This document shows, piece after piece, positions 8,593-11,889 of a stretch of 64,000 nt of DNA. The stretch comes from Halorussus salilacus (GTDB taxonomy: Archaea; Halobacteriota; Halobacteria; Halobacteriales; Haladaptataceae). The position numbers were made by a program, and so were the translations under genes. Each line of letters begins with the position of its first letter. Position 1 is the first letter of the stretch. The notes under the pieces are model-generated. The model ran no database searches, was not told the origin of the DNA, and saw only the letters and a program-made list of their open reading frames with translations. The stretch lies in contig NZ_CP099993.1 in NCBI RefSeq assembly GCF_024138125.1, positions 1,302,001 through 1,366,000 of the forward strand, written 5' to 3'.

Positions 8593-8734
8593 TTCCACCT
8601 TTTGGTCCAGCTTTTGCGAGTGAGCAAGGTCTTGCTGAGCGTAGCGAAGCAAGACCCGGAAGACGCGGAGCGTCTTCCGACGCGAACGAGACAAAAGGTG
8701 GGCGCAGGTGATTCAGCGGAACGGGCGATTCCGG
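8537..8734. repeat. 29-bp direct repeat enclosing a hairpin-rich insert
   Basis: Bases 8537-8565 recur perfectly at 8706-8734. The second copy would encode VIQRNGRF again and then a different tail (REEGFEK and a stop) that still resembles the real tail (RWEDGFEQE). Between the copies, a 10-bp inverted repeat CCACCTTTTG (8595-8604) / CAAAAGGTGG (8692-8701) encloses two perfect hairpins: a 9-bp stem 8628-8636/8648-8656 with loop GAGCGTAGCGA, and a 10-bp stem 8657-8666/8670-8679 with loop GGA. Confidence 0.9.
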
Positions 8735-8767
8735 GAAGAGGGGTTCGAGAAGTGAATTGCGGCGTTC

Positions 8768-8786
8768 GGCCCCTTTCAGTCCCACC
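8768..8786. repeat. Right-edge copy of the GGCCCCTTTC repeat
   Basis: GGCCCCTTTCAGTCCCACC matches the right part of the longer repeats at 32912 and 46528. Its TTTCAGTCCC overlaps the stop codon (8776-8778) and last codons of the metalloprotease gene read on the minus strand, so the Asp-Trp-Trp-Asp C terminus of that protein is written by the repeat. Confidence 0.6.
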
Positions 8787-9795
8787 AGTCGCTGCGGCGG
8801 TCCTCGTAGTCGGCGTCCCGGAACGGCGCGGGCCACTCCGACTCGTCCTCGAAGCCGAAGCCGTAGCCGAACCAGTAGCCGACGTGCCACCCGATGGCGT
8901 CGTCGTCCACGTCGGCCAGCGAAATCCGGAGTTCGTCGTAGCGTTCGAGCGCCCCGTCTCCGTCGGCGTCGACGCCCTGCACGCGCCCGCACGACCCGGT
9001 TCCGCCGTCCCTGCAGGGGAGTTCGTCGGCGAACGCGACGACCACGTCGGCCTCGGTGCGGTTGTCCGTGAACTCGTAGGAGACGTTCGCCGGGACGGTG
9101 TCGTTCGCGCCGTCGGCGTAGTAGTCGAAGGCGTTTCCGACCTGCTCGCGGGCCGCGTCGGCGTCCGAAGCGTTCCCATCATCGAGGTACACCGAGAAGT
9201 TCGAGTCGTTCCACGGGAAGCGACGCTCAGTGGCGTTCGTCTTCGGGAGGGCCGTCAGGTCGGAAGTCGGGGCCATCACGTCTTGGGGCTCCGAGGAGTG
9301 ATTCAGGCCGAGGGTGTGGCCGAGTTCGTGTTTCAGGATGAGCCGCGTGGACTCGTTGGAGTACGACGCCGCGACCTCCAGCGTCACCGGCCGGGAGACG
9401 TGGGCGGCGTCGGTGAGGAAGGGCGCGCACCCCGCGGGGTCGGTGACGTTCGCGCACGAGTCGATGCTATCGACGACCCGGACCACGAGGTCGGGCTCGG
9501 AGGCGTTGGGTTCGAGTTCGTACTCGACCTCGAACCCGGCGTAGCGCTCGCTCGCGTTCGACCAGAAGTCGAGGGCAGACCGGACGTGCGGCCGGAAGTC
9601 CCGCGAGTCGTTCGCGGTGTCGTTGATGGCGACGGTGAGGTTCGACTCGCCCCACGGGTTCGGCCGGTCGTCGCCCTGGTCGGTGGTCATCGCCCGGCGG
9701 TCGGCAGACGAGTCGGCGGTCGTGTCGCCGACGCCCGGGGCGGCCGCGCAACCCGAGAGGACGAGGAGGGCCACCGCGAGCAGTGGACGCCACAT
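8776..9795 (-). CDS. Secreted metzincin-like zinc metalloprotease lipoprotein
   Basis: 339 residues. The N terminus has a hydrophobic signal ending in the lipobox LSGC (Cys near residue 16). The zinc motif HELGHTLGLNH near residue 160 is the metzincin/matrixin form HExxHxxGxxH, with a Met-containing turn (DVMAPTSD) a few residues later as expected for a Met-turn. The mature protein is Asn- and Asp-rich with many NxS/T sites, typical of exported haloarchaeal proteins. The region after residue 195 repeats the N-terminal pattern (FPWNDSNFSVYL versus NPWGESNLTVAI), suggesting an internal duplication in which only the first copy keeps the zinc site. Likely a cell-surface protease. Confidence 0.85.
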   Translation of the reverse strand: MWRPLLAVALLVLSGCAAAPGVGDTTADSSADRRAMTTDQGDDRPNPWGESNLTVAINDTANDSRDFRPHVRSALDFWSNASERYAGFEVEYELEPNASEPDLVVRVVDSIDSCANVTDPAGCAPFLTDAAHVSRPVTLEVAASYSNESTRLILKHELGHTLGLNHSSEPQDVMAPTSDLTALPKTNATERRFPWNDSNFSVYLDDGNASDADAAREQVGNAFDYYADGANDTVPANVSYEFTDNRTEADVVVAFADELPCRDGGTGSCGRVQGVDADGDGALERYDELRISLADVDDDAIGWHVGYWFGYGFGFEDESEWPAPFRDADYEDRRSDWWD

Positions 9796-10098
9796 CAGGA
9801 CCCACGACGACGGTATCGCCCATCAATGTTTGGCGCTTATTTGAAAAAGGCCCTCCGTGTCGAGCGAGGGAGCCCGGGGCGTCCGGGGCGTTGACCCCGC
9901 CTAACACGGCCGAATCGGGCGGGCGACGCCGTCGGTGGAGCGACCGCGGCGTCCGGCGTCTCGGTCTCGACCGCGGGAATCCGTTCCGCAGGAGGACCGA
10001 AAAGCGGCGCTAACCGTCGTGTTCGAGCGCCTATACCGTCTAGTTCGACCCTGAAGGAGGTGTCGAAGACCGAGGGACTCGACGAAGCAGTGGCGGCG
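9796..10098. other. Intergenic region with no gene seen
   Basis: About 300 bp between the divergently read start of the metalloprotease and the end of the CCA-adding enzyme. The first part includes the metalloprotease promoter side. Beyond short GC-rich inverted stretches there is no supported coding frame, tRNA or recognisable repeat. Confidence 0.5.
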
Positions 10099-11460
10099 TC
10101 ACGGCCGCGGGTCGAAGTAGCGCGCGAGTTCGACGCCGAACTCGTCGGCGAGTTCGGCGACCTCCTCGCCGACGAGCACGTCGTAGCCGTCTCCGAGCGC
10201 CGACTCGACGTGGACGCCCAGCGCCACGTCGAAGAGGGCGTCGCTGCGCAGGAACTCGGGGGCGCTCGCGAACTCGCGGTCGCGCTCGACCGCGTACCGG
10301 TCGCCGTCGACGAACGGGCCGTACACGTCGGGGTCGTCCTCGTACTTCCGGAAGAACCCCTCGGCGTGGTCGCGGACGTGGACCGGCGGCCCCTCGTGTC
10401 GCTCGACCGCGGGGCGGTCGGGGACTTCGAGTTCCGCGAACAGCACCGCCGAAACGTCTGCGAACGCGGTCGCGCGTAGCACGTCGAACCCCCGGCGGTC
10501 GAGTCCGTCCCGGACCCCCGAGAGGGACTTCCGGAGCTGGGGGTAGAGCTGGTCTTCGACCACGTCGGGGGCGTCGAAGCGCACCGCGACCGGCGTGGTC
10601 TCCCGGCGTCGGACGTGGTCACAGACCCCCTCGGGCGAGAGGGGGTTGGTCGGCTCCGGGAAGAAGCGGCCCTCGCGCGGGTCGGCGAGCAGGTCGCGGG
10701 CGTGGTGCTGCAACCGGGCGACGTTGTCGGCCGAGCAGACCGCCGCGACGTTGCGCTCGGGGTCGGTGGGGTCGATCACGACGAGGGGGTCCTCGAAGGT
10801 CTCCCGGCCGTGGTCCTCGGGGTCGAACCGGACCGGCGGGTGCCAGTCGGCGGCGGCCTCGACGGTCTCGCGGAAGCCGCCGTGTTCGAGGACGAGGAGT
10901 TCGGTGAGGTAGCCCGAGAACCCGCGCGTCCGGAGGTCGCTCCCGTACGCGCCGATGCCCTTGAGGAACTGCTTGAACAGCCGGACCTCCCCGGCGAGGT
11001 CGGCGTCGAGTCGCGCCTGCAGGTAGTCGTTGTGGAACGGGGTGCGGTCGACCGCCGACCGGATGTCGGTCGCCGCGTCGAGCCGGTAGCACGGCACGAG
11101 GTCCACGTCGAAGCCGTCGTACTCGCCGGTGACGTAGGGGTGTTCGGCGTACTCCTCGCGGCCCTCCGGGAGGACGGCGTGGCCGACTTCGAGGCCGTAG
11201 CGCTCCAGTTGCTCGCGGTCCAAATCCGCCGAAAATCGGACGAAGAGGTCGATGTCGCGGTCGCCGCTGATCCACGTCCCGCGGGCGGTGGACCCGACCT
11301 GCATCGCGTCGGCCTCGACCGGGAGGTCGTCGAGCGCGTCGTCGACGCGCTCGACGAGCGCGTCGACGGCCTCGCGCATCCGCTCGCGCTCTCGGTCGCC
11401 GGGGTCGATTCGCTCGCCGACCGCCGCGACCACCGCCTCGAAGTCCGCCTCGTCGGTCAT
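10099..11460 (-). CDS. cca: CCA tRNA nucleotidyltransferase, archaeal class I
   Basis: 453 residues from the ATG at 11460. The nucleotidyltransferase signature is GSTARGTWISGDRDIDLF near residues 52-69: the GS motif, the RGT and the two catalytic Asp of DRDID. A third carboxylate lies in FDVDLVPCY. The later tRNA-binding tail domain contains KQFLKGIGAYGSDLRTRGFSG, characteristic of the archaeal enzyme. It adds or repairs the 3' CCA of tRNAs, and fittingly is followed on the other side of its promoter by two tRNA genes. An open frame continues upstream to 11922 but crosses tRNA-Asn, so it is not coding there. Confidence 0.95.
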   Translation of the reverse strand: MTDEADFEAVVAAVGERIDPGDRERERMREAVDALVERVDDALDDLPVEADAMQVGSTARGTWISGDRDIDLFVRFSADLDREQLERYGLEVGHAVLPEGREEYAEHPYVTGEYDGFDVDLVPCYRLDAATDIRSAVDRTPFHNDYLQARLDADLAGEVRLFKQFLKGIGAYGSDLRTRGFSGYLTELLVLEHGGFRETVEAAADWHPPVRFDPEDHGRETFEDPLVVIDPTDPERNVAAVCSADNVARLQHHARDLLADPREGRFFPEPTNPLSPEGVCDHVRRRETTPVAVRFDAPDVVEDQLYPQLRKSLSGVRDGLDRRGFDVLRATAFADVSAVLFAELEVPDRPAVERHEGPPVHVRDHAEGFFRKYEDDPDVYGPFVDGDRYAVERDREFASAPEFLRSDALFDVALGVHVESALGDGYDVLVGEEVAELADEFGVELARYFDPRP

Positions 11461-11607
11461 CGGTGTTCGATTGCGGCCGCGCCGCCGAAAACGTATCGTC
11501 TCGTGCCGCGGGACGCCGGTCGCACCGCGGGACTCCATCCCACCTCCTGCGGGCGAAAACGAAAGCCCTATCAAAGGACTCGCGCATACCAACGAATGCG
11601 TTCGGAA

Positions 11608-11680
11608 GCCGTCGTAGCTCAGCTGGTAGAGCGCCACGCTGTTAACGTGGTGGTCCCAGGTTCGAGTCCTGGCGACGGCG
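11608..11680 (+). tRNA. tRNA-Asn (GUU)
   Basis: 73 nt cloverleaf with acceptor GCCGTCG/CGACGGC, discriminator G, anticodon GTT in the loop CTGTTAA, and T-loop TTCGAGT. CCA is not encoded, as is usual in haloarchaea. Its last 21 bases (11660-11680) recur perfectly at 11816-11836. Confidence 0.96.
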
Positions 11681-11836
11681 CTTCTCTCGGCGAACAACGA
11701 CGACGAGCGTAGCGAGTCGTCCGTGAGCCGTGAAAGCGCAACCTCGGCAGACTCGGGCAGACCAGTCGCAGGCCCGGAAGCGCAACGAAGTGAGCATCCC
11801 GGACCGTCTGGGCGTGTTCGAGTCCTGGCGACGGCG
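11660..11836. repeat. tRNA-Asn 3'-end duplication (att-like direct repeats)
   Basis: The 21 bases of the tRNA-Asn T-arm and acceptor end (11660-11680) occur again at 11816-11836, 156 bp downstream. The interval contains ACGAC/GTCGT arms around GAGCGTAGCGA, the same 11-nt core found in the insert after the aminopeptidase gene. Duplicated tRNA 3' ends are the usual trace of tyrosine-recombinase integration, but the interval is too short to encode anything. Confidence 0.85.
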
Positions 11837-11889
11837 TTTTCCTGTGTGTCATCGCGACGAGCGAAGCGAGGAGCCGACGCACAGGAAAA
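11837..11889. repeat. Inverted repeat after the duplicated tRNA end
   Basis: TTTTCCTGTG (11837-11846) and CACAGGAAAA (11880-11889) are perfect 10-bp inverted repeats that begin exactly where the second tRNA-Asn end copy stops. The loop contains GAGCGAAGCGAGGAG, a variant of the core found in the neighbouring inserts. The 10-bp arms with a T-run resemble those of the element at 8595-8701. Confidence 0.8.

What the first reader, a model, noticed from the sequence alone, without database searches (positions are those of the whole stretch)
8628..11857. Shared 11-nt core GAGCGTAGCGA in both inserts
The loop of a 9-bp hairpin in the aminopeptidase insert (8637-8647) and the loop between ACGAC and GTCGT in the tRNA-Asn insert (about 11707-11717) are the identical 11-mer. 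A variant (GAGCGAAGCGAG) sits in the inverted repeat at 11837-11889. The arms differ in sequence but pair perfectly, so the core is kept while the stems co-vary. That is the behaviour of a structured element family rather than of chance repeats. If gene-end duplication and this core go together genome-wide, it would be an undescribed class of mini-element.
Basis: partly seen in the sequence, partly recalled or inferred. Interest (0 to 1): 0.75.

Follow-up and report, generated by a model that had tools for sequence, protein, structure and literature searches.

The report
Haloarchaeal hairpin insertion elements
The repeated 11-letter word is the cap of a special DNA/RNA hairpin that salt-loving archaea carry in many copies, including a family of roughly 50-base double-hairpin elements that have inserted themselves, in frame, even into working genes; the duplicated gene ends beside two of the hairpins are a separate matter.

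Summary
The 11-mer is real: 8637-8647 and 11705-11715, each capping a perfect stem, with a variant at 11859-11869. It is not an unpaired loop. It folds as GA-GC-GNA-GC-GA: a GNA triloop on two base pairs, then a tandem G.A mismatch, then the stem.

Left free in genome searches, the two tip pairs (GC/GC, AC/GT, GT/AC), the N of GNA and all six stem pairs vary with compensation (92% paired versus 27-42% for slid controls). The best-defined carriers are ~48-57 bp double hairpins, up to 38 per genome by a strict pattern. They occur in 72 of 146 genomes of the order; all 80 displayed hits of a scan over 84,980 prokaryote genomes are haloarchaeal.

They are insertions: relatives have empty sites in adenine deaminase (twice) and EtfA. 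All 13 coding cases sit sense and in one reading frame (VSxSEASGGSSDxSxGG). The aminopeptidase insert holds a variant of this element nested in an older 3'-flank hairpin; the tRNA-Asn hairpin shares only the cap.

Gene-end duplication does not travel with the core: 6 of 94 core sites, and it occurs without the core in relatives. Closest in behaviour: Rickettsia palindromic elements and REPs, but membership tests fail. The mobiliser is unknown.

The parts
8628..8656 (+). Capped hairpin P2: stem GGTCTTGCT / AGCAAGACC, cap GAGCGTAGCGA (8637-8647)
   Evidence: the same stem and cap type occur as the free-standing module GTCTTGCTGAGCGWAGCGAAGCAAGGCTCG in congeners
8657..8679 (+). Second hairpin P3: CGGAAGACGC GGA GCGTCTTCCG; with P2 it forms a double-hairpin module
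   Evidence: similar P3 hairpins follow P2 in 139 of 203 held modules
8597..8703 (+). Older gene-end unit: outer stem CCACCTTTTG..CAAAAGGTGGG with GA-interrupted helix GCGAGTGAGC (8616-8625) / GCGAACGAG (8682-8690), holding the double hairpin
   Evidence: z = -7.35; the same outer unit with other hairpins inside in G016, G014, G004, G011, G003
8537..8572 (+). Aminopeptidase gene end, copy 1 (in the gene)
8706..8741 (+). Gene end, copy 2 (29 bp identical, then diverged)
   Evidence: in relatives the second copy matches each species' own gene
11699..11721 (+). Capped hairpin in the tRNA-Asn 3' unit: GACGAC / GTCGTC, cap GAGCGTAGCGA (11705-11715)
   Evidence: orthologous cap is GAGCGAAGCGA in G010, GAGCGTAGCGA in G001, GAGCGCAGCGA in G009
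11816..11836 (+). 21-bp copy of the tRNA-Asn 3' end closing the 3' unit 11682-11836
11836..11890 (+). Inverted repeat GTTTTCCTGTGTGTC / GACGCACAGGAAAAC with inner cap GAGCGAAGCGA (11859-11869)
   Evidence: z = -3.86

Best explanation
The 11-mer is the cap of a haloarchaeal hairpin design: a C(GNA)G triloop on two pairs, a tandem G.A/G.A mismatch, then a Watson-Crick stem of free sequence. It is strand-polar, because the complement would carry TC/TC. The best-defined carrier is a small insertion element of about 48-57 bp: 5'-GT-[6-bp stem, cap]-GCTCG-[second hairpin]-GGY-3', usually entered after CGGY. Such elements have inserted in both orientations between genes, inside one another, and in frame in the sense strand of genes, where they encode an acidic Ser/Gly linker that a halophilic protein tolerates. 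Shown: structure, covariation, empty sites, in-frame rule, haloarchaeal spread. Inferred: they move as folded single-stranded DNA using an enzyme supplied in trans, the cap making the hairpin stable or recognisable; stems keep their pairing through selection for that fold, through copying of one arm onto the other during replication, or both. In the window, a variant of the double hairpin is nested in an older hairpin unit behind the aminopeptidase gene; the tRNA-Asn hairpin uses the same cap without the rest. The gene-end copies arise from a separate tandem duplication process in 3' flanks.
For: Covariation over 97 distinct modules chosen only for their fixed letters: 92.0% of pairs formed against 27-42% when slid, score 0.758 against 0.07-0.13, all 8 pairs changed on both sides; 49 left and 52 right arms among 74 distinct, 35 perfect against 1.2 on shuffling. 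The reversed pattern gives 0 hits in 146 genomes and 2 in 40 with a free tip. Empty sites: most adenine deaminase homologues lack an insertion at site 1 (G014, G004, G013 and G016 carry other sequence there) and none of those that align well has a module at site 2; 26+ EtfA homologues are empty. 13 of 13 coding insertions sense and in one frame. Intergenic orientation is mixed: upstream gene same strand 28, opposite 38. Nested insertion inside TTTTTGGT/SCAGATTTTT. Junctions CGGY|GTC...GGY|G. All 80 displayed hits haloarchaeal.
Against: No transposition was observed and no mobilising gene found. The two IS200-type transposases of the genome sit beside tnpB genes, with no capped hairpin seen in their flanks. 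No clear target-site duplication beyond a possible GGY. Energy models here do not separate ssDNA from RNA, and the complement also folds, though mostly slightly less stably. 30 of 94 core sites form no hairpin in a local fold.
Confidence: 0.72

Rival explanations
1. RNA-level element: the hairpins are transcription terminators or mRNA-processing/stability hairpins, and the stems co-vary because the RNA fold is selected.
For: Hairpins lie downstream of genes in the window, with T-runs in the outer unit; RNA folding is strong; one haloarchaeal hairpin ended 59% of transcripts in a reporter (PMC7237163).
Against: Orientation to the upstream gene is mixed, 28 same and 38 opposite; at least 13 copies sit in sense inside genes, where a terminator would be harmful; haloarchaeal intergenic terminators are mainly T stretches.
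Confidence: 0.2
2. Quasipalindrome correction: replication template switching copies one arm onto the other, so stems stay complementary without selection; the stable cap simply promotes the switch.
For: Arms vary almost freely while flanks and cap stay fixed; pairing is near-perfect even in coding copies; known mutational mechanism (established knowledge).
Against: Does not explain insertion at new sites, the conserved GCTCG linker and ends, or the in-frame rule. It may act together with the main explanation.
Confidence: 0.3
3. One reading: one class of mini-element defined by the core plus duplication of the target gene's end.
For: Both window inserts have gene-end copies and the core; tRNA arrays at L039 repeat this.
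Against: Only 6 of 94 core sites have a spanning repeat; duplications occur without the core in relatives; adenine deaminase and EtfA insertions have none.
Confidence: 0.05
4. Chance: a frequent GC-rich word in a high-GC genome.
For: 95 against 64 reversed words; 27 of 94 in predicted coding DNA, some without hairpin.
Against: Arm pairing about 80-fold over random positions; zero reversed-pattern hits; covariation.
Confidence: 0.01

Closest known systems
Rickettsia palindromic elements (RPE) and other protein-coding palindromic repeats (Wolbachia; Methanocaldococcus jannaschii, Suyama 2005, cited in PMC2229807)
   Same: Hairpin-forming repeats found between genes and inserted in frame in conserved protein genes.
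   Different: RPEs are 105-146 bp single long stem-loops (PMC2229807); these are 48-57 bp double hairpins with a GA/GNA cap, free co-varying stems, and haloarchaeal only. The M. jannaschii family was not available for comparison.
GTAG-tagged REPs mobilised by RAYT transposases
   Same: Short, high-copy palindromes, often clustered, ssDNA-hairpin logic.
   Different: No GTAG tag (junction is CGGY|GTC); the genome's Y1 transposases are IS200-type beside tnpB, with no capped hairpin in their flanks.
CGTC-tagged REPs (PMC3733652)
   Same: Left junction often reads CGTC or TGTC; no dedicated transposase known; RPEs carry this tag.
   Different: CGTC stems are 8-9 bp opening with A-T pairs, loops 4-5 nt, described in five bacterial phyla; here the stem opens C-G and the cap is the 11-nt fold.
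MITEs
   Same: Small, non-autonomous, inserted at many sites.
   Different: No terminal inverted repeats; two internal hairpins instead; no clear TSD.
d(GCGAAGC)/GNA extraordinarily stable DNA mini-hairpin
   Same: The cap contains C(GNA)G exactly.
   Different: That is a physical motif studied in vitro (own knowledge; PMC papers), not a genomic element family.

Membership tests
Rickettsia palindromic element-like | In-frame insertion in protein genes | tested here: met
   13 of 13 coding copies in one sense frame; empty sites in homologues
Rickettsia palindromic element-like | 105-146 bp single palindrome | tested here: not met
   48-57 bp, two consecutive hairpins
Rickettsia palindromic element-like | Sequence homology or rickettsial host | tested here: not met
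   All 80 displayed genome hits are haloarchaea
GTAG REP | Unpaired GTAG at one end | tested here: not met
   Junction logo CGGY|GTC
GTAG REP | RAYT (Y1 transposase) flanked by the repeats | tested here: not met
   Two Y1_Tnp genes in the genome, both beside tnpB, no capped hairpin seen in their flanks
CGTC REP | CGTC (or TGTC) tag | tested here: inconclusive
   Y before GTC: C 46%, T 31%, but that Y may belong to the target
CGTC REP | 8-9 bp stem opening with A-T pairs, 4-5 nt loop | tested here: not met
   6-bp stem opening C-G (78 of 97), GA-RY-GNA cap
MITE | Terminal inverted repeats | tested here: not met
   Ends GTC... and ...GGY are not inverted repeats; the inverted repeats are internal hairpins
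MITE | Target-site duplication | tested here: inconclusive
   GGY on both sides at many sites, GGT clearly at L004/L057, but not in adenine deaminase
Rfam RNA family | Match to a curated family | tested here: not met
   Only tRNAs matched in the window and four element loci at gathering thresholds

The most novel reading that the evidence does not exclude
A haloarchaea-wide system of single-stranded-DNA double-hairpin elements, recognised by their GA/GNA cap by an undescribed enzyme, that continually renew their stem sequences (arm-to-arm copying) and repeatedly enter the same permissive codons of the same genes in different genera (EtfA in Halorussus, Natrialba and Haloarchaeobius), supplying acidic linkers to proteins.
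Probability: 0.3. Interest if true: 0.85.

Novelty: new variant of a known kind. Interest (0 to 1): 0.62.

Why it matters
In-frame palindromic elements are known from Rickettsia, Wolbachia and one methanogen. Here is a large, lineage-wide set in genetically tractable archaea, with a precise structural grammar and many presence/absence polymorphisms between congeners, so mobility, stem renewal and effects on proteins become testable. It also gives annotators an easy signature (SEASGGSSD-type linkers in haloarchaeal proteins) and explains the recurring GAGCGAAGCGAG-like words of these genomes.

Tried and rejected
Hairpin-loop statistics on arbitrary stretches of the genome had little power: the sample avoided known core sites and demanded 7-bp arms. 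A local-fold control on reversed words was too lenient in GC-rich DNA and was not used. Rfam gave only tRNAs. Text search for the 11-mer found no haloarchaeal paper among its 12 hits; searches for haloarchaeal palindromic or in-frame elements found none. IS200/IS605 ends as source: the hairpins flanking the two tnpA genes have no GA/GNA cap. Three IMG/VR hits; the one read shows antisense low-complexity coding sequence with an imperfect module, so no support for viral carriage. Phage DNA: no match; plasmids: one Halorussus megaplasmid copy. PDB: nothing matches the inserted peptide.

Full report
Observation. The identical 11-mer GAGCGTAGCGA lies at 8637-8647 and 11705-11715, the variant at 11859-11869. 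Both exact copies sit in perfect stems (9 and 6 bp). Folding shows that the 11-mer is not an open loop: GC pairs with GC around a GTA or GAA triloop, and GA faces GA between these pairs and the stem. The outer helix around the aminopeptidase hairpins repeats the device: GCGAGTGAGC faces GCGAACGAG as two pairs, GA/GA, two pairs, GA/GA.

Is it more than chance? The bare word occurs 95 times in the 3.6-Mb genome against 64 for the reversed word, a weak excess. Arms are another matter: 25 of 94 retrievable sites have at least 5 perfect arm pairs, against 0.33% of random positions in the same loci and 0 of 57 reversed words. In a local fold 64 of 94 form the capped hairpin; in relatives' loci not chosen for the word, 20 of 25 do.

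The recurring module. Listing all sites showed recurring modules. The best defined is GT-N6-cap-N6-GCTCG followed by a second hairpin and GGY. A search for GTN6GAGCGWAGCGAN6GCTCG, with arms free, found it in 72 of 146 genomes of the order and 25 of 57 genera, up to 38 per genome, and never for the reversed pattern. Freeing the tip as well (GANNGNANNGA) kept the control near zero (2 in 40 genomes) and showed tips GC/GC, AC/GT and GT/AC and all four bases at N. On 97 distinct sequences all eight pairs change on both sides, 92.0% of cells are paired, and sliding the partner strand drops this to 27-42%. The base after the first GA is a purine in nearly all sequences, and the pair closing GNA is C-G in 85 of 97. 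That fits, from established knowledge, the PyGAPu sheared tandem motif and the extraordinarily stable DNA C(GNA)G loop; energy models here cannot prove which nucleic acid matters. Several are Halorussus; the window genome probably belongs to that genus, which is an inference.

It is an insertion. Adenine deaminase of this genome has two extra stretches of 48 and 57 bp that are modules. Most homologues lack an insertion at the first site (G014, G004, G013 and G016 carry other, unrelated-looking sequence there), and none of the well-aligned homologues has a module at the second; the plain empty form is GAC|GG. EtfA has a module after DYG in this genome, in Natrialba and in Haloarchaeobius, while at least 26 relatives between them are empty, suggesting repeated entry at one permissive codon; G011 keeps only the distal part of a module there. 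Modules also sit inside another repeated hairpin's TTTTTGGT/SCAGATTTTT. In 138 modules the left flank is mostly CGGY and the right end GGYG. All 13 coding copies are sense and in the frame reading VSxSEASGGSSDxSxGG, although a second sense frame is also open in 9 of them. Between genes the orientation is mixed. Gene calls behind these counts come from a simple codon model and are approximate; that model at first read two of the 13 as antisense, and translation in the sense frame settled them.

The two window inserts. The aminopeptidase insert is an older unit (CCTTTTGGTCCAG..GCGAGTGAGC..GCGAACGAG..CAAAAGGTGGG) shared with G016, G014, G004, G011 and G003, each with a different inner hairpin. 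In this genome the inner part is a variant double-hairpin module (GTCTTGCT-cap-AGCAAG plus GGAAGACGC..GCGTCTTCC). The duplicate gene end in each species matches that species' own gene, so the duplication is renewed or recent each time; G010 and G001 lack the unit. The tRNA-Asn unit, with its 3' copy, is found in G010, G001, G004 and G016 and in another family (G022). Its hairpin keeps the cap grammar, with N = T, A, T, C in G000, G010, G001 and G009, but it has no second hairpin or GCTCG.

Gene-end duplication. Only 6 of 94 core sites have a spanning direct repeat of at least 18 bp within 300 bp: the two window sites, two in a tRNA array, one other tRNA region (L019) and one long repeat (L066). 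This exceeds unselected DNA (10 of 3000 positions) but does not define the class. Identical 11-mers in two unrelated units are expected, since the cap has few forms.

Mechanism. Shown: fold, covariation, insertion, frame rule, lineage. Inferred: transfer as folded ssDNA with a trans-acting enzyme. The genome's two IS200-type transposases lie beside tnpB genes, with no capped hairpin seen in their flanks, so the enzyme is unknown. Stem renewal could be selection or quasipalindrome correction.

Known? Behaviour is closest to Rickettsia palindromic elements and to REPs; the defining tags, sizes and transposase association were tested and mostly not met (PMC3733652, PMC2229807). The open-access searches found no description in haloarchaea; subscription literature was not searchable.

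Noticed in passing
L039:2100-2960 (G000:C1 about 1417.6-1418.5 kb): A tRNA gene is followed by a tandem array of five ~150-160 bp units, each ending in an exact copy of that tRNA's 3' end plus TTTT and carrying an inverted T-arm copy; at least three unit types.
   Followed up: partly
window 12019-12124: Intron-bearing tRNA with CAT anticodon (probably elongator Met), missed by ARAGORN and found by Rfam, followed by a 27-bp inverted repeat at 12128-12184.
   Followed up: no
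L039:3310-3525, L058, L038, L020, L054: Long nested hairpins GAAAGGGGCCGCCCGCTCGCG...CGCGAGCGGGCGGGGGCTTTC with conserved inner loops CCCTATCC / GGATAT, many copies, often holding capped hairpins and in some loci followed by tandem copies of their own 3' end.
   Followed up: partly
L379, L272, L317 (EtfA genes): The ~50-bp element sits at the same codon of EtfA in three genera while relatives between them are empty, suggesting parallel insertion.
   Followed up: partly
L140 and L145, tRNA-Asn 3' flank: A different double hairpin (TCGAAAATCGC..GCGATTTTCGA plus a second stem) interrupts the duplicated tRNA 3' end at the same base in two congeners.
   Followed up: no
window 8755-8790: Just downstream of the second gene-end copy lies GGCCCCTTTCAGTCCCACC, the reverse complement of the start of the long nested hairpin family, perhaps a remnant.
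   Followed up: no
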